This document shows, piece after piece, positions 2,726 to 20,593 of a stretch of 20,593 bases of DNA (position 1 is its first letter; each line of letters starts with the position of its first letter). The stretch is from Giardia muris (taxonomy: Eukaryota; Fornicata; Diplomonadida; Hexamitidae). The position numbers and the translations under genes are program-made. The stretch covers positions 1 through 20,593 of the forward strand of contig VDLU01000013.1 in NCBI GenBank assembly GCA_006247105.1, read 5' to 3'. Below the pieces are notes generated by a model. That model had not been told where the DNA came from. It worked only from the letters and a program-made list of their open reading frames with translations, and did no database searches.

Positions 2726-2764
2726 TCGGGGGGAATGCCAACCCGAACCAAACCTCAGGCGGTC

Positions 2765-3005
2765 GCAAGAAGCTCCACGCCGTACAGTAGGTCGGAGAAA
2801 AGGGTCGTCAACCCGGGCGAATCGAGGGGAAGCCCCTCAACCCATGCGAGTAGGTGGGATGGACACTTAGAGGCGTTCAGTGCTAGTCCCCCGAGCGCGA
2901 CAGACCGGCACTGTCAAGTCAAACAACCGGGAGATCGGAGGCTCGCGACGGGTGTTCCTCTCGTACTGACCCGACGTACTGGACGCATGGAGATGGTCGG
3001 TAGGA

Positions 3006-3049
<44 letters not shown>

Positions 3050-3099
3050 CCTTAGACGGGTGAACAATCCGACGCTTCCGCACCGATGCATGCGGACGG

Positions 3100-3143
<44 letters not shown>

Positions 3144-3145
3144 GG

Positions 3146-3189
<44 letters not shown>

Positions 3190-3634
3190 TCACCTCCACG
3201 CTCGGATTACCGGAGCGGTTGAAGGATCGTTAGGCCACGCTTTCACGGCAAGTACCGGGACAGGGGGTACTAGTCAAGTAAGCTTATGCCCTTATGCTCC
3301 ACGTGAGGTTTCCGACCTCACTGAGCTTACCATAGGACGCCTGCGGTGTGATCTAGCAGGCGCGCCGCCCCAGCCAAACTCCCCATCCGACCGTGTGCCG
3401 ATGTAAGTCGGTGAGTGGGATGGTGAACAACGTCAGGGTATCTCATGGAAGCGGCCTCCCCTGTATGCTGCACCGATGATCCCATCCCCCAGGATCGGAT
3501 TGGAGTCAAGCTCAAAAGGGTCTTCTTGCCCCGCCGACCAACACCCGCCCGTTCCCGGGTCTGTAGGTTCACGGAGGCATGACTTGGGACAGTGGGATCC
3601 TCGTTGATCCATTCATGCACGTCGGAAATTACCC

Positions 3635-3686
<52 letters not shown>

Positions 3687-5430
3687 AGGGCTTGGATGAA
3701 CCTCTTCATGGTGACGGTCATGGCACTGGGCAGAAATCACGTCGTGTACGCATCCATGACGACTGGCACGACGCTATGTTGTTAGTAGACAGTCGGGATC
3801 CCTCGGTCCGTGCCGGTTCTGATCGATCAGAGCCACTCCTTCTCCCGAGGTTACGGAGCTAGTTTGCCGACTTCCCTGAGTCATGGTCTCTCCCGCCTAG
3901 AGGCTGATCACCTTGGAGTCCTGTTGCGGTTGTGGTACGATCAGGATGGGGGGGACACAACGGGTTTCATGGATGACCGAAGGGACATGTGATCCATCAT
4001 GGCCATGCACGACCTGAAGTACTACTGGCCATGGGGGGACTGGGGTAGGACGGGATGACTCCCACCATGTGCTTCGTTCATGTACCGTTGTGAAAGGATG
4101 TCACCAAGACCCCATCATACCACCGGGATGTTAACCGGTCAGCCCTATCGTCCTGTGAGGATGACCCCATGGTACGGCGTACACCATCGGACTTAGGATC
4201 GTGTCACCCGTATCTGATCGACAGGGATACGGAACCCATCTCCACGTCAGGCCTCCAGATGGAGTAATGGCTACTACTACCGAGATCAGCAATCATGACT
4301 CGATCCACCACGTGTCACCCCATGGCTTCGACTCGATCATGACGACCTCCTACCCGAGACACATCTCGGTCGGGTTCCGATCGTATGCTTCGGCGTGTTC
4401 CATTTTCCGGGCCCCTCGATTCGGCTGGTGGGTTGTTACACACTCCTTAGAGGCTTCCTACTGTTAAGGCCACCTTCCAGCTGTCACGATCGACGGACAC
4501 CGTTTGATCGAGCATACACTTCCACACCTTCCCCCGACTGTCGGTTCATCCCGTCTTGCCCGTCCTGCTTACCAGGAGAGGCCCACTCGACATCAACACT
4601 GTTGAGGGGGCCCACACAAGTTGGCCCCGCTCCACCCTTGTTCATGGTTCGAGGGGTGGATAAGGAGTGACCTCCCTACTCCCACCGATCGTGGCCTTAC
4701 CTAGGGCAGCTGTTCATGATGTCGGCTATCCTGGGAGACATTTCGGAGGTAACCAGCTACCAGGTGGTTCGATGAGTCTTTCGCCCCTACACTCAACTCG
4801 ACCGAGCGATTTGCACGTCAGCACCGGGATGGGCCTCCACCAGGCTTTCGTCTGGCTTCACCCTGGTCAAGTGTAGATCACCACCTTTCGGGTCTAGGAC
4901 CGATCGCTCTGCCCTTGTAAGGGGCCCCTTGAAGTCTTGACTTCCCTTTGCCACATGACTCGCGATCGGTCCTAACTCCTCGGTCCGTGTTTCGAGACGG
5001 GCCCGACCAATCGATCATCGACAGGTCGGGAGTCGCCTCCCGGGTTCAGGGTCTTTTGACGTGCCTGGGTCGGCATCCTTCTCACCTTTCGTTCGCACTA
5101 CTTGGTCCTCTATCGGTCTCGGGGCGGTATTTAGCCTTAGAAGGGTACCACCTCCTCTTCCCTCTACACTCTCAAGCAGAGGTACTCGTCGTTGGGGTTG
5201 TGTCCATCCCTACGGGACTGGCACCCTCCTTGGTGTGGGTTTCAACCCATCTTCGGGTTTAGGACATCCCCCCAGTCCTCACAACGCTCATCGCTTCGAG
5301 GTCGGACTACTCCTGGATCGCTCGCCGCTAATCAAGGAATCCCGGTTGGTGTCTTCTCCTGGGCGTACTGATATGCTTAAGTTCCACCCGTCATCTTCAT
5401 CGGAGTGGGGGGGGATCCTCATCTCATTCC
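2765..5430 (-). rRNA. large-subunit (28S-like) rRNA
   Basis: This encodes the LSU rRNA, transcribed leftward. Read on the minus strand, the conserved 5' element AACTTAAGCATATCA lies at 5384-5370. The peptidyl-transferase-region sequence GGGATAACTGGCTTGTGGC lies at 3173-3155. The sarcin-ricin loop AGTACGAGAGGAAC lies at about 2966-2953, and GAACGCCTCTAAGT follows near 2880. The length of about 2.65 kb is short for a eukaryote, as is known for Giardia. Both ends are approximate: the 5' end is set by the gap to the 5.8S gene, and the 3' end by where rRNA-like sequence gives way to C-rich repeats. Open frames inside it are rRNA shadows. Confidence 0.93.
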
Positions 5431-5454
5431 CCATCGTTCAACCCCTCGAACAAC

Positions 5455-5585
5455 CCAGTTCGTAGATCACCCCACCACCCCGATGATCCATTCGAAGATC
5501 GATGTCACGTGCTTGGACCACATCGAGTATCGTCGTCAGCCACGTCCTTCATCGTCCCCCGAGCCAAGGCATCCACCGGGTCGCG
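5455..5585 (-). rRNA. 5.8S rRNA
   Basis: Between the SSU and LSU genes the minus strand reads GGTGGATGCCTTGGC then CGATGAAGGACGTGGC, the conserved 5.8S sequence (equivalent to the 5' end of bacterial 23S rRNA). Internal spacers on both sides are only tens of bases, which fits the compact Giardia rDNA unit. The 3' limit is approximate. Confidence 0.88.
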
Positions 5586-5622
5586 TCATCTCATTGCCTT
5601 CATCCTCGTACCTTCCCTCTCG

Positions 5623-7054
5623 ATGGATCCATCCGCAGGTTCACCTACGGATACCTTGTTACGACTTCTCCTTCCTCCAAGCCTCGCGGTTCGTCCCTGT
5701 TCGGTTCATCCCTCCCAGGAGCTCGCCAGAAGACCCAGTCGGTAGGAGCGACGGGCGGTGTGTACAAGGGGCAGGGACGTATCCGGCGTAGATTGATGAC
5801 CTACGCCTACTAGACATTCCAGGTTCACGAGGACGTTCCAGTCCACGATCCCAACCACGTGGGGGTTTGATCTCATCAAGCTTCACAACTCGACGTGGTT
5901 TCATCCCCACAGTGTAGTACGCGTGCAGCCCAGGGCGTCTAAGGGCATCACAGACCTGTTATCGCCCCACCTTCCTCCAATTCACCATTGGCGGTCCCAT
6001 CCAGGTTAGGGTCTCGCTCGTTGTCGCAGTCAAGCAGACGGCTCAAGCCACGGGCTGTGAACGGCCATGCACCACCACTCGTACGATCACGAAGGTCCTC
6101 TCAACCGTCGATCCTCCGTACGTCTGGGCCTGGTAAGGTGTTCGCGTTGAGTCAAATTGAGCCGCAGACTCCACGTCTGGTGGTACCCCTCCGTCAATGC
6201 CTTCAAGTTCCAGCCTTGCGGCCATACTCCCCCCAGAGCCCGTACCCTGATCGGTTTCCCTTCGATCCTGACGACCTGGCCAGTCTCTCGGTGGCATCGT
6301 TTACGCCCGGGAATACGGTGGTGTCTAATCGCCTTCTCGCCCCCGGGCTTCGTCCTGGTTCGACTGATATGGTCTTGGCAAGTGCCTACGCCTTTGTCTG
6401 TCTTGGTCGGATCATCCTATTTCACCCGTCCCCCACCAATACACATGCCCTTACCCATTCACCTTCATGTCCGTCCCGGGCTTTCTCGTACTCACTCCCG
6501 CCTTAAGCGCTCCTCTTTCCTCCCGGCTGGACGTCTCGACTCCGGACGTTTTAACTGCAACAGCGCCGTACGACGCCTGCCGAGCTGGAATTACCGCGGC
6601 TGCTGGCACCAGACCTTTCCCTCGACTTGTGCTGGGGTCATCTACCCCCCAGTCTTCCCATTTCATGGGATCCCCCGTTGCTGCCTCACGCCTTCACGCA
6701 TTGGGCAAGTTCCGCGCCTGCTGCCGTCCTTGGATGTACGGGCCGTCTCTCAGGCCCGTTCTCCGGAGTCAAACCCTGATCCTCCGCCAGGCATCATCCC
6801 CTCCGTAGACCACTACTCTACCGACTAGGTAATACCTCGGAACCTCATCCGGGCATTCGCTCCATCGCGTGCTTTCCTTCCCCGCTCTTGAGCACTCGTC
6901 TTGGCGCTGGGTTGCCAGCGGTATCCGTCTAGCCTTCACCCCCGGTCAGACTCGTACCGTTGTACCGAGCCGTCCGCCACTTCATACCTCGTGTCCGCTT
7001 GCATGGCTTTTGTCCTTGGGGGTAGCGTAGTACTCCGGCAGGATCAACCGGATG
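5623..7054 (-). rRNA. small-subunit (16S/18S-like) rRNA
   Basis: The minus strand starts CATCCGGTTGATCCTGCC at 7054. It carries the 530-loop sequence GTGCCAGCAGCCGCGGTAA near 6610-6591 and the decoding-site sequence TTGTACACACCGCCCGT at 5767-5751. It ends after GTAGGTGAACCTGCGGATGGATCC near 5623. The length of about 1432 bases is far below the usual eukaryotic 1.8 kb and matches Giardia. GTTGATCC near the 5' end, instead of the GTCGATCC I recall for G. intestinalis, and the moderate GC content point to G. muris. Confidence 0.96.
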
Positions 7055-8552: not shown

Positions 8553-8772
8553 CCCACGAGCTGGAGGGCGTGAACTCCGGACACCCACTTCTGTCACGAG
8601 TCCGGAGCAGTGAGCAGCCGGCATTGGCTCACACAGCCATGCACGACCTGGTGCCCTTCCCCGCTCTCCATCCATGCCCTCAGACAGATCTGAGGAGGCC
8701 GGCCCTCCTTCATGGAGACGGGTTGGGATCAACCGGGGCTCATGGTCGTCCTCTCGTCCCTCCCGTGATCCC

Positions 8773-8779
8773 GTTCACT
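8773..8779 (-). terminator. AGTGAAC poly(A) signal of ankyrin gene copy 1
   Basis: The minus strand reads AGTGAAC, matching the Giardia consensus AGTRAAY, 130 bases beyond the TGA stop. The same heptamer is conserved in the other copy at 18129. Giardia 3' UTRs are usually shorter, so the assignment is moderate. Confidence 0.45.
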
Positions 8780-8908
8780 CCTCTTGATCGAAGGACGAAG
8801 ACCGGGGCACTGGACGATGACTGTTGATCCCGGAGGCCCATAGGAGGACCGACGGGGACTCCTTCATCTGGCCGGGCCTTCCGACCTCCTGCCCCTGCCG
8901 GACGCAGG

Positions 8909-10561
8909 TCATCCAGTGGGCGTTCCAAGGCCCTGGGGGTGGTTGGTGAGCCTGCCCCCGACAGCAGCGAGGTTCTGGAGGAGGATCCTCTTCTCCTCCT
9001 CCACCTCCTCGAGGCGTCTCCGAAGGTCTTTCATGTCATGGCTCTCGGTCCTCAGTTGGGCGTTCTCCTTCTCGAGGACGAGGTTCTGGGCCTTCTGGTC
9101 TGCGAGTGCTCTCTTGAGGTCCTCAATGGTCTTGGAGAGCTGCTCCTGAAGAGTCGCCTTCTCGGTGGTGAGGGCGTTGATGAGGGCTCGATTCTGGTCA
9201 GAGGCCTTTCGAAGGTCCTCGTTCATCTCCGCATGCCTCTTGGACTCATTGATAGCATTGTCGAGCTGCTGTTTGAGAGAGGAGACTTCTGCAGTTAGCT
9301 GATCGATCTGAGCCCTGTCCTGTCGTTTCCTGTCCTCGAACTGTTTGTGGAGGATATCGTTCTCTTTGTTGGCCTTCTGGAGTTGTTGTTTGAGAGAGGA
9401 GTTTTCCTGATTCAGTTGGGATAACTCCTTCTTTGTCTCCTCTAGGGTATTCTTGGAAGAGGAGAGGTCTTTCTTGAGGGAGTCGTTCTCAGTGGCGAGC
9501 TTGTTAACACGATCCCGGAGCCTAGGCACTTCACCGGGGTTATGTGGCGGGGGGATTCGCTCTGTCCCCTCATTTTCGAGGAGCTGATGGACTCGGGTGA
9601 AGTCGCCTCCCCACGATACCCCATTGTTCGCATGCCATTGAGCTGTATGACCTTTGGAGTCCTTCATTCCCTGTTCGTAGGGGAGAAGGAGCTCAACGAT
9701 CTTGGGGTAGTTGTAGTGGGCTGCGATCATGAGAGCGGTTGCTCCGGAAGGGAAGGCAATTCCATTAAAGTTGAACTTTCGTTCCTCCGTTGACTGCTTT
9801 CCCGCCTCGGAGAGGAGGAGTCGGGCGCAGTCCGTCTTGCCATTAAGGGCGGCCCACATCAATGCGGTCAATCCATCTTCGTCCTGCATCCCAATTTCCT
9901 TTTCTAGGAAGGGGATGCAATTAGAGTGGCCATATTTTGCGGCCATCATCAGGGCTGTCATCCCGGTCGGATCCTGATATCCAACACGATCCAGATGCTT
10001 CTTGACTCCCTCAATGTCTCCGGTGACTGCGGATACCATAAGCGGTGGTTGCTCTTTCGGGGGAGGGAGTTGTTCCGTGCCCTCGTTCTTGAGGAGCTGA
10101 CGGACTCGAGTGAAGTCACCTATCTTTGTGCTGTTGTTCGCATGCCATTGAGCTGTGTATCCTTCAGAATCCTTAAGTCCCTGTTCGTAGGGGAGAAGGA
10201 GTTCAACGACATCGGGATGGTTCTGGTGGGCTGCGAGCATGAGTGCGGTTGTTCCGGGAGGATAAGTGTTGAGAAGGCCCTTCCATTCCTCTGTCGTCTG
10301 CTTTCCTGCCTCAGAGAGGAGGAGTCGGACGCAGTCTGTATAACCGTCGGAGGCTGCCAACATCAGTGCGGTCCGTCCACAGTTGTCCTGCATCCCGATC
10401 TCCCTCTCAAGTAGGGGGATGCAGTTGGCGTTACCTTCCATTGCGGCATACATCAAAGCCGTCCATCCATTTTTGCTCTTCTCCCCAACTTGATTGAGGT
10501 TCCTTTTCACGTCCTCGAGGTTGCCAAACATGGCCGCCCCCATCAAATCTGTAAGGGACAT
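8909..10561 (-). CDS. ankyrin-repeat / coiled-coil protein (protein 21.1-like), intact copy
   Basis: The 550-residue protein belongs, by architecture, to the large Giardia 'protein 21.1' group. Residues 1 to about 340 are ankyrin repeats, recognisable from repeated G-x-TALM-x-AA and LLLSEAGKQ / ELLLPYEQG motifs. They form two successive modules of about 165 residues, each ending in TAQWHANN, a (R/H)QLL(K/E)NEGTE element and a Pro-rich hinge. Residues from about 345 to 535 are a long Lys/Glu/Leu/Gln coiled coil containing SSLKQQL twice (388-394 and 427-433). There is no signal peptide or membrane segment, so a cytosolic or cytoskeletal scaffold is likely; partners are unknown. The ATG follows TTCAAAA, a typical Giardia A-rich start context, and both start and upstream sequence are conserved in the second copy. 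Stop is TGA. Confidence 0.9.
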   Translation of the reverse strand: MSLTDLMGAAMFGNLEDVKRNLNQVGEKSKNGWTALMYAAMEGNANCIPLLEREIGMQDNCGRTALMLAASDGYTDCVRLLLSEAGKQTTEEWKGLLNTYPPGTTALMLAAHQNHPDVVELLLPYEQGLKDSEGYTAQWHANNSTKIGDFTRVRQLLKNEGTEQLPPPKEQPPLMVSAVTGDIEGVKKHLDRVGYQDPTGMTALMMAAKYGHSNCIPFLEKEIGMQDEDGLTALMWAALNGKTDCARLLLSEAGKQSTEERKFNFNGIAFPSGATALMIAAHYNYPKIVELLLPYEQGMKDSKGHTAQWHANNGVSWGGDFTRVHQLLENEGTERIPPPHNPGEVPRLRDRVNKLATENDSLKKDLSSSKNTLEETKKELSQLNQENSSLKQQLQKANKENDILHKQFEDRKRQDRAQIDQLTAEVSSLKQQLDNAINESKRHAEMNEDLRKASDQNRALINALTTEKATLQEQLSKTIEDLKRALADQKAQNLVLEKENAQLRTESHDMKDLRRRLEEVEEEKRILLQNLAAVGGRLTNHPQGLGTPTG

Positions 10562-10690
10562 TTTTGAACATCAAACGTCCACTTTCACCAGCCTTCCACT
10601 GAGGCTCCCATCTGACACTCTGGGCATCCAACCACTACCACCTACCTGCCCCGAGGACGGGAGGCCCACAGCTCTCCTCGGGATGCTCGT
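10562..10690 (-). promoter_or_regulatory. conserved 5' flank of ankyrin gene copy 1
   Basis: Shared with 16268-16395 upstream of copy 2, including GGAGAGCTGTGGGCCTCCCG, GTGGTTGGATGCCCAGAGTG and the start-proximal TTGATGTTCAAAAATG. Giardia promoters are short and AT-rich close to the ATG, so the TTGATGTTCAAAA element is the likely core. Conservation of the whole 130 bases also reflects duplication. Confidence 0.55.
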
Positions 10691-11283
10691 TGGGGCCTCC
10701 TCGCCCCCACAAGCCAGCCCGATCGCATCCATAACCCCTGGAAGCCGTTGATGCAGGTCGTGCAGACGTCCTTGCTGTCTGGACGGGATACACAGTTGGA
10801 GAGGACGCACTTCGTACAGGCGACGGGAGAAGAGGAGGAAGAGTGGTGGCCCTCGAGGCACTCCGAGCACGTGAAGGCGTTCGAGGCGTAGGTGCACGTC
10901 CCGCAGTTCTCTTTTCCTCCATTTGTCGCATCGCTACAGAGGTAGAGGTTCTTATTACTACCATCCGTCTTGACGAAGGTGATCGCACCATCAGCTGCCG
11001 TCTCACAAACACCGTTGGTGGCCGTCTTGCAGAGCTGCTTTCCAACCCCCTGTGTCTGGTCATAACAGCCTCCCTCGAACAGGAAGTAGTTGTTGGTAGA
11101 AGGGTCCCTGCCACCACTGGCCGCCTTGTTGCAGCCCGAGCACACACCACCAGTACAGTCAGCAGTCGTAACGGTGCTTGGATCCGCACAAGCCCCATTG
11201 ATCGGGGCCTGGTTCGTGTCACTGCACTTCTTGCAGAACTCTCCCTCAACCCCCGGGATGGTGAAGGTCGAACCACCCCCGTC
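10642..11283 (-). pseudogene. VSP module C, truncated at both ends
   Basis: The frame opens right after a TGA with DGGGSTFTIPG and carries the VSP amino-terminal pattern: CKKC, PINGACADPSTVTTADC, CSGC, YFLFEGGCY, CGTCTYAS, CSEC, CTKC, CTTCINGF. There is no in-frame ATG and no signal peptide. The VSP similarity stops near 10740, and the frame then runs about 33 residues into the ankyrin gene's upstream DNA before stopping at 10642. The Cys-rich C-terminal half, transmembrane helix and CRGK tail are all missing. Its first about 110 bases of coding sequence are nearly identical to the matching part of module A. It cannot make a normal surface VSP and is most likely a recombination remnant or donor fragment. 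Confidence 0.8.
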
Positions 11284-11444
11284 TCATCCTTCCCCTTCAC
11301 CATTCACTCACTTCCCCCTGCATCCGAACCACCAACCGAGGAAGCCCCCGAGGCCCCCCAGGACCAGCAGGACGGCGATGACGATCCCCGCAATGGCACC
11401 CCCAGAGAGCCTGGAAGAACTGGAGGAGGGGGGAGGGGGGCAGG
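11197..11444 (-). repeat. VSP junction repeat, copy B/C
   Basis: This holds the last about 135 bases of VSP module B, the 24-base spacer and the first about 85 bases of module C. It matches 13207-13454 at an offset of exactly 2010 bases. The 3' coding part differs at only about two positions over 134 bases. Confidence 0.85.
11284..11307 (-). terminator. 24-base inter-VSP spacer with poly(A) signal (B/C)
   Basis: After the CRGK-TGA end of module B, the minus strand reads GTGAATGG then TGAAGGGGAAGGATGA. Module C opens immediately after that final TGA. AGTGAAT (11308-11302), overlapping the stop codon, matches the Giardia poly(A) consensus AGTRAAY. The ATG in the spacer is out of frame with VSP. 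Confidence 0.65.
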
Positions 11445-13293
11445 CATCGTTGGTGGGAGTGGAGCCGTCCCAGCAGAGGGTGCACTTCCCATTTGGACAG
11501 GAGGTGCACCCACTGGGGCAGGCCATGCAGTCGGAGGGGCTGGTCACAGTAGTGGTGTTGTAGTACCCAAGGGCACAGGAGCTGCAGGCGGTCGAGGAGG
11601 TGCAGGCCCCGCACTCCTTCGGACAGGCCGTGAAGGCGCCTGAGGCTGTGTCGAGGATGAAGGGGGCATTGGGGGCGGGAGTAGTGCACTTCCCGTCGAC
11701 AGCCGTCTGGCACAGCTTGCTCCCGACCGAAGTCCCGGTGGTCGAAGATACAGGATAGCAGCCTCCCTCGAAGAGGAAGTAGCTGTTCGTATTACCGGTC
11801 ACAGTCGGATTCTTGCAGCTCCCGCACCTCGTGGCACTGGACGAGACGGGGTCAGTCCCGGCCTCGTTGAGGCAGATGTCGTTGGCGCCTGCCGCCCTCG
11901 TCGTCTTCTTGTTGACGGCGGCCAGGGGCGTGCAGGTCCCGTCAAATGGAACGAAGCCGGAAGGGCACTCCTTGCAGACGGTCGTGCTCCCAACAAGAAG
12001 CTGGTTCTTCAGAGGGCAGATCTTGAGGTCCGCCGCCTTCTGGGGAGAGAAGCATCCGCCCTGATAGGCCAGGAAGCCGTTGAGGCAGGAGGTGCAGTAG
12101 CCGGAGGACCCCGTGCAGATCTTCGTGTTCGCATCGACGCACTCTCCGTTGATCGGGTTCTTCCCAGTTGGACACCCGACACAGACGAGCCCCGAGCCGA
12201 GGCCGAAGTCGAGGCAGCTCTCGCAGTTGTCGGGGCACTTGCTGCAGGTCGTGATGGAGAGGGAAGAGTTGTAGGTTGGGCCGAAGCCGCTCTTGCACGC
12301 CTCGCACTGGCTCTTGTCAGTGTTGCAGGCTCCACAGTTCTGGAGGTCGCAAGGCTGGCACGTCCCGTACTGCTGACCGGCGTCGGGGGTGTAGAAGAAG
12401 CCCTCGGAGCACTTGTCGGCATCGCACTTCTTGTGAGATTGATCGGCGTCGCACTGGTCGCAACCCTCGGGACAGGCCTTGCAGGTCGAGTCGAGGTAGA
12501 AGGTCGGCATGCACTTGGTGCAGGTGTCGGCGTCCGTGCACGTCTTGCAGTTCTCGGTCTTGCACTTCGTGCACTTGTTTCCGTCCTTGAAGTACCCGTC
12601 GGTGCAGGTCGTGCAGGTGTTGGCATCGGAGCAGGTCAGACAACCGGCGGGACAGGCCGTGCACGCGCCCTTGTCGAGGTAGAACCCGTCCGCACAACCC
12701 GAGCAGGTGTTGGCAGCATTCGCCTCGATGCAGTTCTCGACCGAGCAGGAGAAGCAGTTGGCCTTGGTCGAGTCGGGAAGAAAGCCGGGGTTGCAGGTCG
12801 TGCAGGTGGCCGCGGAAGCACTGGTCGCCGTCCCCGTCTTGCAGTTCTGGGGCAGGGCGGGACAGCCCGAGATAGCGCCATTCGACGTGAAGGGGACGGA
12901 CCCGGGGAGGCAGGCCTGACAGGTGACGGTCGAGGCGTAGGTGCACGTCTCGCAGTTCGCCACTCCTCCGCTCGAGGCGTCCCCGCAGAGGTAGAGCTTC
13001 CCGTCCTTGAGGAAGGCCCCAGATGCCGCCGTCGTGCAAGCACCGCTGCTGGCCGCTGAGCAGAGAATGCTCCCGGGAGAGGACGCCTGGTCGTAGCACC
13101 CCCCGTTGAAGAGGAAGAGGGTCCCGGACGTCCCACACGACTCACACGTGCCATCGGCAGTTGGGGACTTCTGAGTACAGTCATTGCCTGGAGTCCCACA
13201 CTTCCCATTGATCGGGGCCTCACCCGTCTCACTGCACTTCTTGCATAACTCTCCCTCAACCCCCGGGATGGTGAAGGTCGAACCACCCCCGTC
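11308..13293 (-). CDS. variant-specific surface protein (VSP) module B, lacks start codon and signal peptide
   Basis: An open frame of 661 codons encodes a VSP body: over 25 CXXC motifs across the ectodomain, GGCY motifs (NGGCY near the start, EGGCY later), and FGPTYNSSL. The C-terminus has a CPPPPSSSSS linker, a Gly/Val/Leu/Ile-rich transmembrane helix and the terminal CRGK of the VSP family. Such proteins coat the trophozoite and undergo antigenic variation. The frame starts directly after an in-frame TGA at 13296-13294 with DGGGSTFTIPG. The first usable codon is an internal GTG at 12963, and no signal peptide can be encoded. Only 24 bases separate it from module A, leaving no room for its own promoter. 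I read it as an intact but unexpressed cassette; expression after recombination behind a leader is possible. Confidence 0.8.
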   Translation of the reverse strand, partial: DGGGSTFTIPGVEGELCKKCSETGEAPINGKCGTPGNDCTQKSPTADGTCESCGTSGTLFLFNGGCYDQASSPGSILCSAASSGACTTAASGAFLKDGKLYLCGDASSGGVANCETCTYASTVTCQACLPGSVPFTSNGAISGCPALPQNCKTGTATSASAATCTTCNPGFLPDSTKANCFSCSVENCIEANAANTCSGCADGFYLDKGACTACPAGCLTCSDANTCTTCTDGYFKDGNKCTKCKTENCKTCTDADTCTKCMPTFYLDSTCKACPEGCDQCDADQSHKKCDADKCSEGFFYTPDAGQQYGTCQPCDLQNCGACNTDKSQCEACKSGFGPTYNSSLSITTCSKCPDNCESCLDFGLGSGLVCVGCPTGKNPINGECVDANTKICTGSSGYCTSCLNGFLAYQGGCFSPQKAADLKICPLKNQLLVGSTTVCKECPSGFVPFDGTCTPLAAVNKKTTRAAGANDICLNEAGTDPVSSSATRCGSCKNPTVTGNTNSYFLFEGGCYPVSSTTGTSVGSKLCQTAVDGKCTTPAPNAPFILDTASGAFTACPKECGACTSSTACSSCALGYYNTTTVTSPSDCMACPSGCTSCPNGKCTLCWDGSTPTNDACPPPPSSSSSRLSGGAIAGIVIAVLLVLGGLGGFLGWWFGCRGK

Positions 13294-13454
13294 TCATCCT
13301 TCCCCTTCACCATTCACTCACTTCCCCCTGCATCCGAACCACCAACCGAGGAAGCCCCCGAGACCTCCCAGGACCAGCAGGACGGCGATGACGATCCCCG
13401 CAATGGCACCCCCAGAGAGCCTGGAAGAACTGGAGGAGGGGGGAGGGGGGCAGG
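13207..13454 (-). repeat. VSP junction repeat, copy A/B
   Basis: Same structure as 11197-11444: the 3' end of one VSP, the spacer and the 5' end of the next. The 2010-base offset is a multiple of three, so the reading frame is kept from module to module. Confidence 0.85.
13294..13317 (-). terminator. 24-base inter-VSP spacer with poly(A) signal (A/B)
   Basis: Identical to the B/C spacer. AGTGAAT (13318-13312) overlaps the TGA of module A, and a second in-frame TGA (13296-13294) closes the spacer just before module B. Confidence 0.65.
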
Positions 13455-14946
13455 TCCCATTGAAGGACGACCCGTCCCAGCAGGTCGTGCAGGCCGTCGT
13501 GTTGCATCCCGTGCAGCCCGAGTGGTAGATCGAGCACGCCTTGCAGTCGGGGGTGGCTCCAGCTGTGGTGTTGGCGTTGTAGTACCCGAAGCCGCAGGAC
13601 GTGCAGGTGACGGCACCGTTCGAGGAGGTGCAGGCCCCGCACCCCGGGACCTTCGAGGAGCAGGAGGTGAGGACGGTCCCATTGAGGTAGAGGCCCGAGG
13701 TGGTATTGACAGCATTACAGACCCCACCAGAGGCCGAGGTGCAGGCGCTCTTCCCGACCTCCGTGGAGGCGTTGTAGCAGCCCCCGTTGAGGAGGAAGAA
13801 GTTAGTGGTCGAGGACCCGGTCACGTCCTGGCACTTCCCGCACCTCGTGGAGGACGCATCGAGGGCGGTTCCGTCCTCCTTCTGGCAGATCTGGGTCGCC
13901 CTCGTCACGTTCGTCGAGGCGACCAGAAGGCATTCTCCGTTGATCGGGACGAAGCCCGGCTTGCACTCGGAGCAGACGGTCGTGTTCCCGACCAGGAACT
14001 GCTTCTCCTTCGCACAGACGCCCAGCTCGGCGGCCTTGAAGGTCGAGTAGCATCCCTCGAGGTAGGGGACGTATCCATTGAGGCAGGACGTGCAGGTGCC
14101 GGAGGAGTCGGTGCAGACCTTCTTGGTGGTCTCGTTTGCAGGAACACACCCCCCGTCGATCGGGGCCTGATCAGTCGGACACTCGGTGCAGACGAGCCCC
14201 GGACCGAGGTTGGTGCAGGAGGTGCAGTTCTTGGGACAGGAGTCGCAGGACGTGATGGCAAGGGAGGAGTTGTAGGTCGGGCCGAAGGAGGGGAGGCAGG
14301 CCGAACAGGTCTTCTCGTCCGTGTCGCACGTCTTGCAGTTCTGGACGGTACAGGCCTTGCAGGTCTTGTCATTCTCTCCAACAAGGCCGAAGCCGGGAAG
14401 GCAGGACTTGCAGGTGAAGACCTCTCCGGCACGGGAGGTGGTCGAACCTCCGTTTCCACCTGAGTTCCCTCCTGGAGTTGGGGCCGCATAGGTGCATGTA
14501 CCGCAGTTCTCTTTTCCTCCTGCATCTTCTGAGGTGTCACTGCAGAGGTAGAGAACCTCACTCTTGATGAAGGCGGGGGAGTTATCCTGGAGAACAGTGC
14601 ACTTCCCAGCAACCACGGTCTTGCAGAGCTTGTTCCCGGGAGAGGAGTCCGTCTTGTAGCACCCACCATAGAAGAGGAAGTAGTCCGTTCCTGTTCCACA
14701 TCCCGTACAGACACCATTGGCACATTCAGCAGTCGTAACGGTGCTTGGATCCGCACAAGCCCCATTGATCGGGGCCTCACCCGTCTCACTGCACTTCTTG
14801 CAGAACTCTCCCTCAACCCCCGGGATGGTGAACTTTGAGTTTGCATCGCACTCTCCCGTAGCTCGAGCCTTCACCTCCACCGAGCCCTCGAGGACGTCGA
14901 TCTCCGGTGCTGCTCTCCCGGAGGAGCGGTCGATCGTCCCGAGCAT
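13318..14946 (-). CDS. variant-specific surface protein (VSP) module A, start uncertain, no signal peptide
   Basis: The VSP body begins near GECDANSKFTIPGVEG (about 14856) and has about 18 CXXC motifs. It carries GGCY motifs, FGPTYNSSLAITSC and a C-terminal linker, transmembrane helix and CRGK tail almost identical at DNA level to module B. As first module of the array it could be the expressed member, but the nearest in-frame ATG (14946) gives MLGTIDRSS and a charged leader with no hydrophobic signal. The same frame stays open to 15801; those extra 285 residues are Arg/Pro/Ser-rich and look like chance read-through of GC-rich DNA. Other frames upstream also show no signal peptide. It may be 5'-truncated by recombination at about 14870, or its start may be misread. 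The VSP identity is certain, the start is not. Confidence 0.75.
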   Translation of the reverse strand: MLGTIDRSSGRAAPEIDVLEGSVEVKARATGECDANSKFTIPGVEGEFCKKCSETGEAPINGACADPSTVTTAECANGVCTGCGTGTDYFLFYGGCYKTDSSPGNKLCKTVVAGKCTVLQDNSPAFIKSEVLYLCSDTSEDAGGKENCGTCTYAAPTPGGNSGGNGGSTTSRAGEVFTCKSCLPGFGLVGENDKTCKACTVQNCKTCDTDEKTCSACLPSFGPTYNSSLAITSCDSCPKNCTSCTNLGPGLVCTECPTDQAPIDGGCVPANETTKKVCTDSSGTCTSCLNGYVPYLEGCYSTFKAAELGVCAKEKQFLVGNTTVCSECKPGFVPINGECLLVASTNVTRATQICQKEDGTALDASSTRCGKCQDVTGSSTTNFFLLNGGCYNASTEVGKSACTSASGGVCNAVNTTSGLYLNGTVLTSCSSKVPGCGACTSSNGAVTCTSCGFGYYNANTTAGATPDCKACSIYHSGCTGCNTTACTTCWDGSSFNGTCPPPPSSSSSRLSGGAIAGIVIAVLLVLGGLGGFLGWWFGCRGK

Positions 14947-16267
14947 TGCGGGTCGTCCGGGCTCAGACCTCAGGCATGACGATCCCATTGGGTGGTGCGA
15001 AGACCGATCCTCCTGGAGCGGACCTAGTTGGGAGCTGCTGGACGGTCCTGAGTTGTGTGGTCTTGCACCAAGGTCTGGGATGAGAGGGGAGGGGCCTGTC
15101 AGGCTGCGGTCGAGGAGGCGGGCTCTATGACGACTCCTCACCAAGTCCTCTCTCCATCTGTCGGCAGGACTCCGAGCTCCTGGACGTCTGGTGCGTCCTC
15201 CCAGTGGTCCCGTCCCTGAGCCACGGTCTGAAGGGCGTGAGGAGCCACAAACCGGGCCCCTGCTCGAAGTCCTTCGTTCGTCAACGATCTGCAGGACGGG
15301 CCTCCTCTCGTGGCCAGGAGCACACGTCCACGACCTCTTCCATATCTCCTCGGATGCTCCCGTCCCTCCAAACTCATACTTGGTGGGCAACGAGGACAGA
15401 CAGCACGGCCTTCTTGTCGTCCCCTGCCCCGAGGGAAGGCTCGAAGTGGTCATGATGGGGACTGCTTCTCGACTTCCGGAGAGGAGTAGTGGACGAGGTA
15501 TCCCGACGTCATGCCTCTTCGACTCCTTGAACGAGCCGGGACTGAGAGTCCTCACGAAGGTCACGACCTCGAGGAGGAGCGGAGAGAGTCGTCTGTAATC
15601 CCAGAGCCACGGGCCGAGATGAGTCGACAGGAAGGGATGTCCGTCATCCAGCACAAGGGTCCTGGCCTCTCGATCCCAAGGACCTTGCAGGCACGGTTCC
15701 CAGTCCTCGTCGTGTGGTCCCATCCGAAGAGCTGAGTCATGAGACACCCGTTGATGGAACAGGGGTGATGAGGACTGCAGTGCGACGGGAGGTGCCCACA
15801 AGGACGTCGTGGAGTGGACGGACGAACCGTCTCGTGCAGGAATGGGGCCACGGGACAGGCCACCGGTGTGAAAGGACGGACGGGAGAGGGGAGCAGTAGG
15901 TCTTCATCAGGCCGGGCAGTCTGGAAGGACTGAAGGACTATCGTGGGCACCACTGGTTCCGGACAGCAGTGATGGCCTCTGGTGCAGGACGGCTCGTTGT
16001 CGTCCCAGGCCGTGAGCCCGCCCACATTGGACGACTCCGGCTCCTCGTTGGCAGAGATGGGACGTGTCCCTCCCCAACGGCCAGGGAGAGAGGACGAGCA
16101 TAAGTCGGGGGCGTCTCCCTTCTGAGTCTGGATGCGAGTTGCACGTCAGCCAGCTTGGACCCACGCCTATCTGGAGGGGCCGGAAGGCTCTTCACCCTGC
16201 CATTGAGTGGGTGGGGAGCTATAAGGGGAGACTGATGACCAGTGGGAGCTCATTCGGGGACGAGAGA
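14947..16267. other. intergenic region between VSP array and ankyrin copy 2
   Basis: About 1.3 kb without a supportable gene. The minus-strand frame continuous with VSP module A covers 14947-15801, and smaller frames occur on both strands, but none has recognisable domains or VSP-like cysteine spacing. No A-rich start context followed by a convincing open frame was found. Confidence 0.5.
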
Positions 16268-16395
16268 ACCCCGAGGAGAGCTGTGGGCCTCCCGTCCTCG
16301 GGGCAGGTCGTTGGTAGTGGTTGGATGCCCAGAGTGTCGGATGAGCGGGAAGGGGGAGCCTCAATCCGAGGAGAGTTGATGCTTGATGTTCAAAA
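16268..16395 (+). promoter_or_regulatory. conserved 5' flank of ankyrin gene copy 2
   Basis: This matches 10562-10690 in reverse complement: the same GC-rich block, the same GTGGTTGGATGCCCAGAGTG, and the same TTGATGTTCAAAA immediately before the ATG. About 10-25 bases around 16342-16380 differ between copies. The AT-rich start-proximal element is the probable Giardia-type core promoter or initiator. Confidence 0.55.
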
Positions 16396-17859
16396 ATGTT
16401 CGATACGGATTTGATGGAGGCGGTCAAGAAGGGAGACCTCAAGGGCGTGAAAAGGAATCTCAGTCAGGCTGGGAAACAGGATGGATATGGTGGGACGGCC
16501 CTGATGTGGGCTGCAATTAATGGCCGCGCCGATTTCATCTCCCTACTTGAGAAGGAGATTGGAATGCAGGACAACAGGGGATGGACCGCATTGATGCTAG
16601 CCGCCCACAAAGGCAATACGGATTGTGCCAGACTCCTCCTCTCAGAGGCCGGGAAGCAAACGACGGGGGAATGGATTGGCTTTCCCCCCGGGACGACCGC
16701 TCTCATGACGGCAGCTCATCGGAATTATCCCGAGATTGTTGAGCTCCTTCTCCCCTATGAGCAGGGAATGACTGATTCCAAGGGTCATACCGCTCAATGG
16801 CATGCAAACAGCAGTCCAGAGAAAGGCGACTTCACCGAAGTCCGCAAGCTCCTCGAGAACGAAGGGACAGAGCGAATCCCTCCTCCGAGAGAAGAATGTC
16901 TGCTTATGGCATCTGCAATCACTGGAGACATCGAGGGAGTCAGGAAGCACCTGGATCGTGTCGGATATCAGGATCCGACCGGGACGACGGCATTGATGAT
17001 GGCAGCAAGCTATGGTCACTCTAATTGCATCCCCTTCCTAGAAAGAGAAATTGGGATGCAAAGCAATGATGGGACGACCGCATTGATGAAGGCCGCAATG
17101 AAAGGTCACACTAGTTGCATTCCCCTACTTGAGAAGGAGATCGGGATGCAGGACAACTCTGGATGGACTGCATTGATGCTGGCCGCCTACCATGGCAATA
17201 CGGACTGCGCCCGGCTCCTCTTCTCTGAAGCGGGGAAGCAAACAACGAAGAGTAGTGGGATCACCTCGAATGGCAAAACAGTTCCCTTCCCTTCCGGAAT
17301 GACGGCTCTCATGCCTGCAGCCTACTTCAACCGCCCTGAAATCGTCCAGCTCCTTCTTCCCTACGAGCAAGGATTAAAGGATTCCGAAGGACACACTGCC
17401 AAGTGGTATGCAAACAACAGTCCAGAGAAAGGAGACTTCACCCAGGTCCGCCAGCTCCTCGAGGACGAAGGGATAGAACGACTTCCTCCATCAAGTCCTG
17501 GACTAACCAATCAGGAACATATCAACAAGCTCACAGCTGAGATCGAGTCTCTCAAGAAAGACCTCTTCTCGTCCAAGAATGCCCTAGAGGAGACAAGGAA
17601 GGAGCTATCCCAACTGAATCAGGAAAACTCCTCGCTCAAACAGCAGCTCGACAATGCTATCAATGAGTCCAAGAGGCATGCGGAGATGAACGAGGACCTT
17701 CGAAAGGCCTCTGACCAGAATCGAGCCCTCATCAACGCCTCACCACCGAGAAGGCGACTCTTCAGGAGCAGCTCTCCAAGACCATTGAGGACCTCAAGAG
17801 AGCACTCGCAGACCAGAAGGCCCAGAACCTCGTCCTCGAGAAGGAGAACGCCCAACTGA
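16396..17859 (+). CDS. ankyrin-repeat / coiled-coil protein (protein 21.1-like), frameshifted copy
   Basis: As read, this encodes 487 residues. Residues 1 to about 365 are ankyrin repeats of the same two-module plan as copy 1 but clearly diverged, with one additional repeat of about 32 residues (around 222-253). Coiled coil starts at about 373. The SSLKQQL element occurs once, not twice, so the 39 residues between the two copies in the intact gene are absent. After ALINA (about 17738) the frame is lost: a run of three C in copy 1 is two C here, producing about 40 Arg/Ser/Pro-rich residues and an early stop. The ATG follows TTCAAAA as in copy 1. The protein may be genuinely truncated, or the base may be missing from the assembly. 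Confidence 0.82.
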   Translation: MFDTDLMEAVKKGDLKGVKRNLSQAGKQDGYGGTALMWAAINGRADFISLLEKEIGMQDNRGWTALMLAAHKGNTDCARLLLSEAGKQTTGEWIGFPPGTTALMTAAHRNYPEIVELLLPYEQGMTDSKGHTAQWHANSSPEKGDFTEVRKLLENEGTERIPPPREECLLMASAITGDIEGVRKHLDRVGYQDPTGTTALMMAASYGHSNCIPFLEREIGMQSNDGTTALMKAAMKGHTSCIPLLEKEIGMQDNSGWTALMLAAYHGNTDCARLLFSEAGKQTTKSSGITSNGKTVPFPSGMTALMPAAYFNRPEIVQLLLPYEQGLKDSEGHTAKWYANNSPEKGDFTQVRQLLEDEGIERLPPSSPGLTNQEHINKLTAEIESLKKDLFSSKNALEETRKELSQLNQENSSLKQQLDNAINESKRHAEMNEDLRKASDQNRALINASPPRRRLFRSSSPRPLRTSREHSQTRRPRTSSSRRRTPN

Positions 17860-18000
17860 GGACCGAGAGCCATGACATGAAAGACCTTCGGAGACGCCTC
17901 GAGGAGGTGGAGGAGGAGAAGAGGATCCTCCTCCAGAACCTCGCTGCTGTCGGGGGCAGGCTCACAACCACCCCAGGGCCTTGGAACGCCCACTGGATGA
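17740..18000 (+). pseudogene. displaced 3' end of ankyrin gene copy 2
   Basis: The rest of the coiled coil, including MKDLRRRLEEVEEEK, continues in a different frame. Two further single-base losses relative to copy 1 (near 17965 and in the C run at 17971-17974) bring the frame back, so that it would end at the same TGA (17998-18000). Three one-base losses summing to a codon, all at short homopolymers or repeats, are suspicious of sequencing error. Confidence 0.75.
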
Positions 18001-18128
18001 CCTGCGTCCGGCAGGGGCGGGAGGTCGGAAGGCCCGGCCGGATGAAGGAGTCCCCGTCGGTCCTCCTATGGCCTCCGGGATCAACGGTCATCGTCCAGTG
18101 CCCCGGTCTTCGTCCTTCGATCAAGAGG

Positions 18129-18135
18129 AGTGAAC
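18129..18135 (+). terminator. AGTGAAC poly(A) signal of ankyrin gene copy 2
   Basis: Matches AGTRAAY and lies at the equivalent place to the signal at 8773-8779 of copy 1, about 130 bases beyond the shared TGA. Confidence 0.45.
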
Positions 18136-18354
18136 GGGATCACGGGAGGGACGAGAGGACGACCATGAGCCCCGGTTGATCCCAACCCGTCTCCATGAAG
18201 GAGGGCCGGCCTCCTGGATCTGCCTGAGGGCATGGATGGAGAGCGGGGAAGGGCACCAGGTCGTGCATGGCTGTGTGAGCCAATGCCGGCTGCTCACTGC
18301 TCCGGACTCGTGACAGAAGTGGGTGTCCGGAGTTCACGCCCTCCAGCTTGTGGG

Positions 18355-19376
18355 TCGTGAGTGGAACCGTGCACGTTGGACATCTCGTTCTCCGGACCAA
18401 CGCCCCTTGAAGGAACCCGTAGACGCATGGGTCGCAATCCCATGTCAGGATGGTACCGCAACGACAAACGCTCTGGGTCCTAAGCACCTCTGTATAAGCA
18501 CATGATGCAGGATGGTTCCCCTCGATGAGGAGGGCTCAACGACGACCAGTTCGACAGCACTCTACGTGAGCGGCACCTTCTTTGCGGCATCCTCAGGCCA
18601 TATGGCCCGGAAGTCCGGCAGTACCGTCGGGATGGAGAGCCGTGGTTGAGGAGCAGGGTGCGTGCTGAGGTCGAGGTCACCGTGCTGGCGGTTATGACGA
18701 TGGATGCGCCCCACTTCCCTATCCATCCTTGCCATCCTCCCCGTCCTGGGCCGGGGGGCCTCATCGCCTCCACTTACGATGGAGGAGTCCCGTACCTTCT
18801 CCCGTCCCGCGTGACGTGCCAGTCGAGGAGAATCCGTCCAAAAAAGAGCAAGGCTCGACACGACCGGTTAAGCACCCCGAACCCGCCCCCTGTCCTCAAA
18901 GGGCCGCTTTCCCCTTGACAAGCCCCCGACGCTTGAGGGACGCGAAAGATCGCATCCTCATCAACCATGATGATTCCACCACCAGGCCACCCCCTGCCTG
19001 ATAATGAGCAGGAGATGCTTTAATAGTGTTGGTTTCACTTAGACGCGGAAGACGGACTTCGATGTATCTTGGCTCCTCGCCCCCTAGGAGTAGTACGCGG
19101 ACACGGTTATCTATTGATTGACGCATGATCGCGTCCCTGATGAGGCGCCTCGGGACAGTTATGCGTTTCGTATTGGTCTGAATCTAGGTTGTATGCCCAC
19201 GTCCAGCAGTACGTCTTTCCGTTACGCCTGTCGATGTGAATGTCTCCTACGCGGTGTCAGCACCAACAGTCGTTGCAGAAGACCATCCAACCATTTTGTG
19301 GGCAAGTGTACCACTCTAGACAGTGCGTTTCCTCTTCTTGTTCGGTCCTGATTGTCTCAACTTTGTGGGGCAAAAA
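18355..19376. other. region between inverted repeat and Rep relic; only weak small frames
   Basis: No confident gene. Two minus-strand frames are worth recording. 18140-18529 runs out of the repeat and contains paired cysteines (VCRCG, CDPC, CPTC) at 18350-18470. 18896-19186 has no ATG at its opening (first ATG at 19126) and reads protein-like through RQSIDNRVRVLLLGGEEPRY before ending at 18896. Neither matches a family I recognise. GC content falls from about 18960 onward, in step with the Rep relic to the right. Confidence 0.4.
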
Positions 19377-20325
19377 ATGGAGCCAAGTAAGAGGCGACCT
19401 CCTACACCACGCCATTAGGTATTCACGGCGCGGAGGAGCCATTACGGATGGTGCCGTCTGATTTATCCTCTCGCGTGCGATATGTTGTCTGGCAGCACGA
19501 GAAGGCTCCCACGACCGATGCATGCTCAAGGATATGCTGAATTCACCGATTTCTCACGCTTTACAACAGCGCGATCTCTTCTTCAATTACCTGAAGGAAC
19601 GCACCTTGAGGTTCGAGCGGGTACACGTTCTCAAGCACGAGACTACTGTAGGAGGGAGGAGACCGTGTTGATGGATCCTGGAAACAAGGCACTTGGCAGC
19701 CTGAAAGGGGTAGTGCTGCTCGCCTTTTTGGAGGCCAGACGCCTGAGGAGTTCCTTCGTTCGTGGGACGACTCTGCGAACGTTGCTGATCTGTCTATAGA
19801 TCGAGACGCTCTCGTGCATCGCTTCCCTTCTATCTTTGCACGGGAGTCTAACTTGGTTTGCTTATGGACTTGACGTCTCCTCAATGCCCGCATCTCGACC
19901 GTCGACATTAAGCTGTTCGACTGGCAGATCGCTCTGCCTCGTCACCTACGCGCCCCTAGACGAGGAGGAGCTTTTGGAACTGGCACGAGTCTGCCACTGG
20001 TAAATCGACGTTCGTCAGTACTTGGCACGTGTCGAGTTTCGTCGCGTTCTTATCCCTCGTTGGTCCTTGAGGGATCTCCTCCTTGCGTACGTCACTGGAT
20101 CATAGCCTTCAGTATGCCACGCGATGCACAGGAGGAGTTCTTGCAGGACCGCACGTATCCGACCACGCTCGAACGTACCTCTGATGGAGGTATCCAGATG
20201 TCAGACAAGTATATGTCCTGTCAGAAGTACGTTGATGCTCATGTGATCGTGACCGCGAACACCTCTCCTCTATACGAGAAAGCTCCCGAAGTGCATCGTT
20301 GAGATCTACCTCGACCTTCATCTAT
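19377..20325 (+). pseudogene. rep: CRESS-DNA-virus-type replication initiator (Rep) relic
   Basis: About 950 bases hold, in order but in shifting frames, the landmarks of a Rep protein (usual length about 300 residues). These are a VFT motif-I remnant after an in-frame TAG (19416), QHEKAPTT (about 19490-19516), the metal-binding HAQGY (19521-19535), HLEVRAGT (19602), the catalytic-tyrosine motif DYCRRE (19641), GSWKQGTW (about 19673), a Walker A GKST (19999-20010), a Walker B-region IIAFSMPR (about 20100) and the motif-C VIVTAN (20243-20260). The first ATG (19377) follows CAAAAA. At least five frame changes and a TGA near 19877 break it, YxxK has become YxxR, and the Walker B acidic residue appears to be Ser. 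Family: HUH endonuclease plus superfamily 3 helicase of circular ssDNA viruses. Giardia is a proposed host of Vilyaviridae. It is non-functional as read. Confidence 0.85.
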
Positions 20326-20593
20326 GGTCTGTGCATATTGGGTGCTCGTGTTCCTAGAGGTCAGTCGGAACAATGAAGCAGGGAAGAGTCAGGAACAGAT
20401 GACTTCGATCCACGAGGAGCAGCACGTGATCAGCCGCCCCTAATCAACCTCTGAGACCCTGGGGATGGCGTCTCTTCGCTTTGTTCCGGTCGGGTTCATC
20501 GAATGCGAATATAGTGGACTGCTTCTTGTTCGATCTGCACGAGTCAACCCCGGTCTCCCATGACTTCCCCTCTTCGAGGGACCACGGGGCAAC
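20326..20593. other. right edge, nothing recognised
   Basis: After the Rep relic the sequence has no recognisable gene or repeat. No capsid-like frame, origin nonamer or terminal repeat is visible before the window ends. Confidence 0.4.

What the first reader, a model, noticed from the sequence alone, without database searches (positions are those of the whole stretch)
19377..20325. Endogenous CRESS-virus Rep relic next to a VSP/ankyrin locus
Seen: ordered HUH-endonuclease and SF3-helicase motifs on the plus strand, split over frames, in DNA of lower GC than its surroundings. Known: rep-like genes occur in Giardia and Entamoeba genomes, and Vilyaviridae are proposed to infect Giardia. Inference: an old integration, or a plasmid-like element, fixed near a recombinogenic locus.
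Basis: partly seen in the sequence, partly recalled or inferred. Interest (0 to 1): 0.8.

Follow-up and report, generated by a model that had tools for sequence, protein, structure and literature searches.

The report
Broken viral replication gene in Giardia
Near the end of a chromosome of what is very probably the mouse parasite Giardia muris lies a broken replication gene like those of tiny circular DNA viruses, a kind of fossil already known from another Giardia species.

Summary
Window 19377 to about 20340 (+) is a decayed CRESS-type Rep gene. The HUH half is solid: Pfam Viral_Rep over its cut-off (27.6 bits, E 3.6e-6), PDB Rep chains at E 4e-7, a metagenomic Rep (P0001) at 42.0 bits against at most 24.6 in 500 shuffles. 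The helicase half rests on motifs alone (Walker A plus motif C in 0 of 3000 shuffles); no profile supports it. The host is very probably Giardia muris (inferred). The window is one whole small contig; the left end of a 2.8-Mb contig and another small contig repeat the locus with 0 mismatches but 19 and 34 gap openings. So the relic is chromosomal in the assembly, and some of the window's frame breaks look like assembly errors. Three lesions shared by 3 of 3 contigs show it is broken. A 14-bp direct repeat (13 of 14) flanks it. The low GC is only local. Vilyaviridae membership could not be tested; Kinsella 2020 reported no such element in G. muris. Verdict: new member of a known kind, CRESS Rep pseudogenes of protists.

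The parts
19377..20340 (+). Decayed CRESS-type rep gene (end approximate)
   Evidence: PF02407 in one of nine pieces; PDB Rep chains; P0001; motif order; three lesions shared by 3 of 3 contigs
19416..19430 (+). In-frame TAG stop followed by the motif I remnant VFTA
   Evidence: three-frame reading, same in 3 of 3 contigs
19518..19658 (+). HUH domain stretch matched by Pfam Viral_Rep (motif II HAQGY 19521, motif III YCRR 19644)
19984..20007 (+). Walker A-like motif HESATGKS
   Evidence: motif only; no helicase profile hit
20243..20260 (+). SF3 motif C-like VIVTAN
   Evidence: motif only; hhalign puts it on the right columns but with E 0.17
19334..19347 (+). Left copy of a 14-bp direct repeat, possible integration footprint
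   Evidence: 0 of 300 shuffled flank pairs reach 13 of 14, windows chosen after seeing it
20522..20535 (+). Right copy of the 14-bp direct repeat (one difference)
18706..19310 (-). Decayed ORF of a repeated subtelomeric family, left flank of the relic
18816..19000 (.). Block of about 185 bp shared with 18 other places in the genome at 94-97% identity
16396..17859 (+). Ankyrin-repeat ORF left of the relic
11308..15801 (-). Two VSP ORFs (11308-12963 and 13318-15801)
   Evidence: Pfam VSP in both; C-terminal GCRGK
2733..7054 (-). rDNA unit (SSU 5622-7054, 5.8S 5440-5587, LSU 2733-5413)

Best explanation
A rep gene of a circular Rep-encoding ssDNA replicon (a CRESS virus more likely than a plasmid) was joined into a chromosome end of a Giardia, very probably G. 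muris, and has decayed into a pseudogene. In life such a Rep nicks the replicon's origin with its HUH/Tyr site and unwinds it with its SF3 helicase (knowledge of the family). Joining to the chromosome by Rep-linked nicking or by end joining at a break, leaving a short direct repeat, is inferred. Shown: HUH homology, motif order, linkage to chromosomal sequence in the assembly, lesions common to three contigs. Inferred: viral source, integration route, age, species name. It most likely does nothing today.
For: PF02407 over cut-off; PDB Rep chains 6h8o and 2hwt at 4.1e-7 and 4.8e-7; P0001 41% identity over 61 aa, 42.0 bits against at most 24.6 in 500 shuffles; hhalign with five Reps E 7.5e-6; motif chain in 0 of 5000 shuffles; helicase motif pair in 0 of 3000 shuffles and 0 of 102 other window tiles; same locus in C1 (2.82 Mb) and C41; stop and frame changes shared by 3 of 3 contigs; related integrations known in G. 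duodenalis.
Against: No helicase profile or PDB match (hhalign E 0.17). No nonanucleotide origin in the window and no capsid match in the genome, though that search had no positive control. Motif III reads YCRR, not YxxK; motif I is degraded. Two protein-database searches found nothing at E up to 0.01, the third one protein at E 0.03. A plasmid Rep (p4M) also scores well with the HUH piece.
Confidence: 0.78

Rival explanations
1. The Rep came from a bacterial CRESS-type plasmid, not from a virus.
For: The HUH piece scores 80 with RepA of Bifidobacterium plasmid p4M, second only to P0001 at 103 among five Reps. No capsid gene or origin was seen. The plasmid hypothesis was raised earlier for Giardia Reps.
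Against: P0001, the best match, resembles solved Rep chains such as 7lar (E 9.8e-34; that this is a porcine circovirus Rep is recalled). Whole virus integrations are published for G. duodenalis. The p4M helicase region shows no similarity to the relic's C-terminal piece (z -0.6), but that piece has no clear match anywhere.
Confidence: 0.14
2. A working or recently working Rep gene whose breaks are long-read assembly errors.
For: The three contigs differ by gaps only in BLAST (0 mismatches, 19 and 34 gap openings); 8 of 31 indel events fall in the Rep kilobase.
Against: The stop before motif I, the frame change between the motif I segment and motif II, and the different frames of Walker A and motif C are the same in 3 of 3 contigs; motifs I and III are altered.
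Confidence: 0.04
3. Contaminating or chimeric sequence assembled into Giardia contigs.
For: The published assembly had contaminated contigs removed; no reads could be examined here.
Against: Same arrangement in three contigs, one of them 2.82 Mb; the gene is decayed; left flank belongs to a repeat family of the same genome and right flank to its ankyrin/NEK family.
Confidence: 0.03
4. Chance resemblance.
For: Only one piece reaches a profile cut-off, and by 1.6 bits.
Against: Independent PDB, P0001 and shuffle tests agree.
Confidence: 0.01

Closest known systems
Rep/Cap endogenous elements of Giardia duodenalis assigned to Vilyaviridae (Kinsella et al. 2020, PMC7493932; sections 7 and 17, abstract and passages read)
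   Same: CRESS-type Rep sequence inside Giardia chromosomes
   Different: Those are in G. duodenalis A2 and B; the paper states that the G. muris assembly held no element of the three families. No Cap was found here. Sequence kinship could not be tested.
Rep-like genes of Giardia intestinalis (Liu et al. 2011, PMC3198968; section 5 and passages read)
   Same: Rep-like gene in a Giardia genome, some copies interrupted
   Different: Other species; neighbouring genes in that paper match gut viral metagenome sequences, whereas the neighbours here are Giardia families
P0001, a 307-aa Rep from a 982-base metagenomic contig
   Same: PF02407 plus PF00910; 41% identity over 61 aa of the HUH domain
   Different: Intact frame; origin unknown; helicase similarity to the relic not shown
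RepA of Bifidobacterium pseudocatenulatum plasmid p4M
   Same: PF02407 domain; score 80 with the HUH piece
   Different: Bacterial plasmid; its remaining sequence shows no similarity to the relic's C-terminal piece (z -0.6)

Membership tests
CRESS-type Rep (HUH + SF3 helicase), as a pseudogene | HUH domain by profile | tested here: met
   PF02407 27.6 bits against cut-off 26
CRESS-type Rep (HUH + SF3 helicase), as a pseudogene | HUH motif II (HxQ) | tested here: met
   HAQGY at 19521
CRESS-type Rep (HUH + SF3 helicase), as a pseudogene | HUH motif III (YxxK) | tested here: inconclusive
   Tyr kept, YCRR with Arg in place of Lys
CRESS-type Rep (HUH + SF3 helicase), as a pseudogene | HUH motif I | tested here: inconclusive
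   VFTA remnant behind a stop; alignment to P0001 reached by 23 of 300 shuffles
CRESS-type Rep (HUH + SF3 helicase), as a pseudogene | SF3 helicase domain | tested here: inconclusive
   motif pair in 0 of 3000 shuffles, but no Pfam or PDB match
Endogenous element | embedded in host chromosomal sequence | tested here: met
   in the assembly: C1 of 2.82 Mb and two further contigs; no reads seen
CRESS virus genome | nonanucleotide origin NANTATTAC | tested here: not met
   0 exact matches in the window; therefore not filed as a virus genome
CRESS virus genome | capsid gene | tested here: inconclusive
   PF02443 no match in the genome, but nothing rang in any control
Vilyaviridae | Rep nested in the Vilyaviridae clade | not testable with these tools
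   no sequence known to be Vilyaviridae was reached; Kinsella 2020 reports none in G. muris
CRESS-type plasmid (pCRESS) | Rep nested among plasmid Reps | not testable with these tools
   only two plasmid Reps were compared; no tree made

The most novel reading that the evidence does not exclude
CRESS viruses have infected the Giardia lineage beyond G. duodenalis, so that the association is genus-wide and old, and G. muris keeps the fossil of a Rep lineage outside or basal to Vilyaviridae, missed by nucleotide-level screening because it is decayed.
Probability: 0.33. Interest if true: 0.65.

Novelty: new member of a known kind. Interest (0 to 1): 0.45.

Why it matters
Published Giardia CRESS elements are from G. 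duodenalis, universal in A2 and B assemblies and absent from A1 and E, and the G. muris assembly was reported to hold none of the three protist-associated families. A Rep relic in a second Giardia species would widen the host evidence for CRESS viruses and give a locus that can be looked for in other rodent Giardia to date the association. It also suggests that profile searches find relics that BLASTn screening can miss.

Tried and rejected
Low GC as a foreign signature: rejected, it is close to the host average. Three gene copies: rejected, one locus in redundant contigs. The minus-strand ORF left of the relic as a capsid gene: considered because it diverges from rep, but it belongs to a family repeated at other contig ends or beside rDNA, and the pieces that I scanned had no Pfam match above cut-off; left unassigned. 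Nonanucleotide origin: none. Circovirus capsid profile: none, uninformative. PF00910 in the genome: 14 matches at E up to 1, one over the cut-off (C4, 24.1 bits), none at this locus; controls rang in 14 of 14 genomes, over the cut-off in 6; not followed. Walker A piece: AAA_29 at E 0.11, below cut-off. Relatives: two protein-database searches empty at E up to 0.01 (110 and 49 candidates), the third one hit of 17 candidates; viral contigs with protein queries empty (in one search nine stretches matched a pattern, none confirmed); one DNA pattern 0; a looser one 27 records, of which 10 matched PF02407 at E up to 0.001 and 3 of 27 were over the cut-off, in frames of 119 to 146 aa, too short to serve as full Reps; genome contigs 32 pattern matches, none confirmed. 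The HUH piece against phages and plasmids: none at E 0.1, only chance-level rows at E 10; the helicase piece against plasmids: none at E 10. P0001 against phages and plasmids: 6 and 5 records, of which 4 of 11 were fetched as yardsticks. The score of the helicase piece with P0001 (z 4.7, 0 of 300 shuffles) is discounted because BLASTP puts that alignment on P0001's N-terminus. MAFFT showed 23 substitution columns among the contigs where pairwise BLAST showed 0 mismatches; I take this to be gap cost, untested. No tree was made, for lack of reference sequences; no structure was predicted.

Full report
WHAT WAS CHECKED. The sequence and its frames show an ATG at 19377, an in-frame TAG followed by a motif I remnant, HAQGY at 19521, YCRR at 19644, HESATGKS at 19984 and VIVTAN at 20243, in that order and in different frames. 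Of nine stop-to-stop pieces scanned against Pfam, one matched PF02407 Viral_Rep above the curated cut-off (27.6 against 26 bits, E 3.6e-6); two others had only sub-threshold matches to unrelated families, and none matched a helicase family. PHROGs (5 pieces) and NCBIfam (4 pieces) gave no match at E up to 0.1. The longer HUH piece from contig C1 matched PF02407 again (26.6 bits) and PDB chains 6h8o and 2hwt at 4.1e-7 and 4.8e-7, with four further Rep chains at 0.2 to 0.73 and one unrelated chain at 0.98. The helicase piece matched no PDB chain at E up to 1.

CHANCE. P0001, a Rep found with part of the HUH piece (the only protein at E up to 10 among 17 candidates; E 0.03 for 5.77 billion sequences), gives 42.0 bits at window 19521-19658; the best of 500 dinucleotide shuffles of 19000-20593 gave 24.6. 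The chain of motifs II, III, Walker A and C occurred in 0 of 5000 shuffles, and the Walker A-motif C pair in 0 of 3000 shuffles and 0 of 102 other tiles of the window. The patterns were written after seeing the sequence. hhalign of the HUH piece with five Reps gave E 7.5e-6; of the C-terminal piece E 0.17 and 0.35% probability, though on the motif C columns. The HUH half is therefore shown, the helicase half a motif-level inference.

WHOSE GENOME. G000 has 9,737,486 bases in 52 contigs; C4 has 1,289,658 bases and C1 2,823,333. The G. muris genome paper (PMC7641422, passages only) gives 9.8 Mb in 59 contigs, five above 1 Mb, two of them of 1.290 and 1.297 Mb, VSPs with a GCRGK tail, and 54.7% GC. 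The window's two long VSP ORFs end in GCRGK and match Pfam VSP.

REDUNDANT CONTIGS. The window is the whole of contig C40. Window 9132-20593 matches C1:1-11473 with 0 mismatches and 19 gap openings; 7974-20373 matches all of C41 with 0 mismatches and 34 gap openings. Gap-only differences point to uncorrected long-read indels in overlapping contigs of one locus rather than three copies. A three-way alignment counted 31 indel events, 26 of one base and 23 next to a like base; 8 lie in 19377-20340 (8.3 per kb) against 22 in 9132-19000 (2.23 per kb) (its 23 substitution columns disagree with BLAST and are probably gap cost). The Rep lies at the ends of C40 and C41, where coverage is likely low (inference). 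Some of the window's frame breaks are thus probably not biological. Three lesions are the same in 3 of 3 contigs: the stop before motif I, the frame change between the motif I segment and motif II, and Walker A and motif C in different frames. Unless errors are shared, the gene is broken in the chromosome.

SETTING. From left to right: an rDNA unit on the minus strand (2733-7054), an ankyrin ORF, VSP ORFs and a second ankyrin ORF, a decayed minus-strand ORF of a repeated family (18706 to about 19310), the Rep relic, and in C1 an ankyrin/kinase ORF at C1:11444-13561. The block 18816-19000 occurs at 21 places: 3 are this locus, 17 are other contigs and one lies near the right end of C4. Of seven such stretches that I fetched, five carry LSU rRNA in the fetched part. 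Homology to this family was last seen, weakly (E 0.003 to 0.006), at 19310, just left of a 14-bp sequence at 19334-19347 that recurs with one difference at 20522-20535. Of 300 shuffled flank pairs 0 reached 13 of 14, but the test windows were set after the repeat was seen, and by my own rough arithmetic one such pair somewhere in 2.3 kb would not be surprising. It may be an integration footprint. I found no empty site and made no systematic search for one.

ORIGIN. PF02407, P0001 and DNA search find only this locus, in its three contigs. The HUH piece scores 103 with P0001, 80 with p4M RepA, 52 and 50 with two inovirus Reps and 47 with a staphylococcal plasmid Rep (the five compared). P0001 was picked by this piece and the others by P0001, so the ranking is biased. 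A viral source is favoured mainly by what is published for G. duodenalis. Kinsella 2020 (PMC7493932; abstract, passages, sections 7 and 17 seen) reports Rep and Cap integrations in G. duodenalis, found in A2 and B assemblies and absent from A1 and E, and states that the G. muris assembly GCA_006247105.1 contained no element of the three families. That G000 is that assembly is not shown. Liu 2011 (PMC3198968; passages and section 5 seen) reports rep-like genes in G. intestinalis. The main text of the G. muris paper has 0 occurrences of 'virus'; its supplements were not seen. Searches of 5.39 million open papers for Giardia muris with endogenous viral element (0 papers) and with CRESS (3 papers, unrelated by title and start of abstract), and broader ones (listings only), showed no report of this relic; subscription papers are mostly not covered.

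HOW IT WOULD HAVE WORKED. From knowledge of the family, not from calls: Rep nicks the origin by the Tyr of motif III with a metal held by motif II, and the SF3 domain unwinds. Joining to a chromosome through Rep-linked nicking or break repair is inferred. No contig holds an intact frame over the gene, motifs I and III are altered and the window has no exact nonanucleotide, so it most likely has no function now.

VERDICT. The finding is real: a CRESS-type Rep pseudogene in a Giardia chromosome end, to judge by the searches above not yet reported for G. muris. It is a new member of a known kind. Whether it is Vilyaviridae, another CRESS lineage or a plasmid Rep stays open.

Noticed in passing
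window 1-20593 against C1:1-11473 and C41: C40 overlaps the left end of the 2.82-Mb contig and extends it by about 9.1 kb into an rDNA unit, so this chromosome end can be extended to the rDNA; C41 is a redundant copy.
   Followed up: partly
window 18816-19000: A block of about 185 bp is kept at 94-97% identity at 18 other places, mostly contigs with rDNA where I looked, while sequence on both sides has diverged; why it is conserved is unexplained.
   Followed up: partly
window 18706-19310 (-); L056:3440-4485 (-); L060:2343-3276 (+): A decayed, repeated minus-strand ORF family (shared YTCPxNGW and LIxDxIxR-like stretches) beside rDNA; no Pfam match above cut-off in the pieces scanned.
   Followed up: partly
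window 8553-9284 and about 17628-18354: Inverted repeat of about 730 bp, 98-99% identical, with an ankyrin ORF at each arm and the VSP ORFs between, like the VSP pair arrangements described for G. muris.
   Followed up: no
C1:11444-13561 (L008:1444-3561): The ankyrin/kinase ORF right of the relic aligns to paralogues only from about C1:11470 on, close to where contig C40 ends; its N-terminal part may be lost.
   Followed up: no
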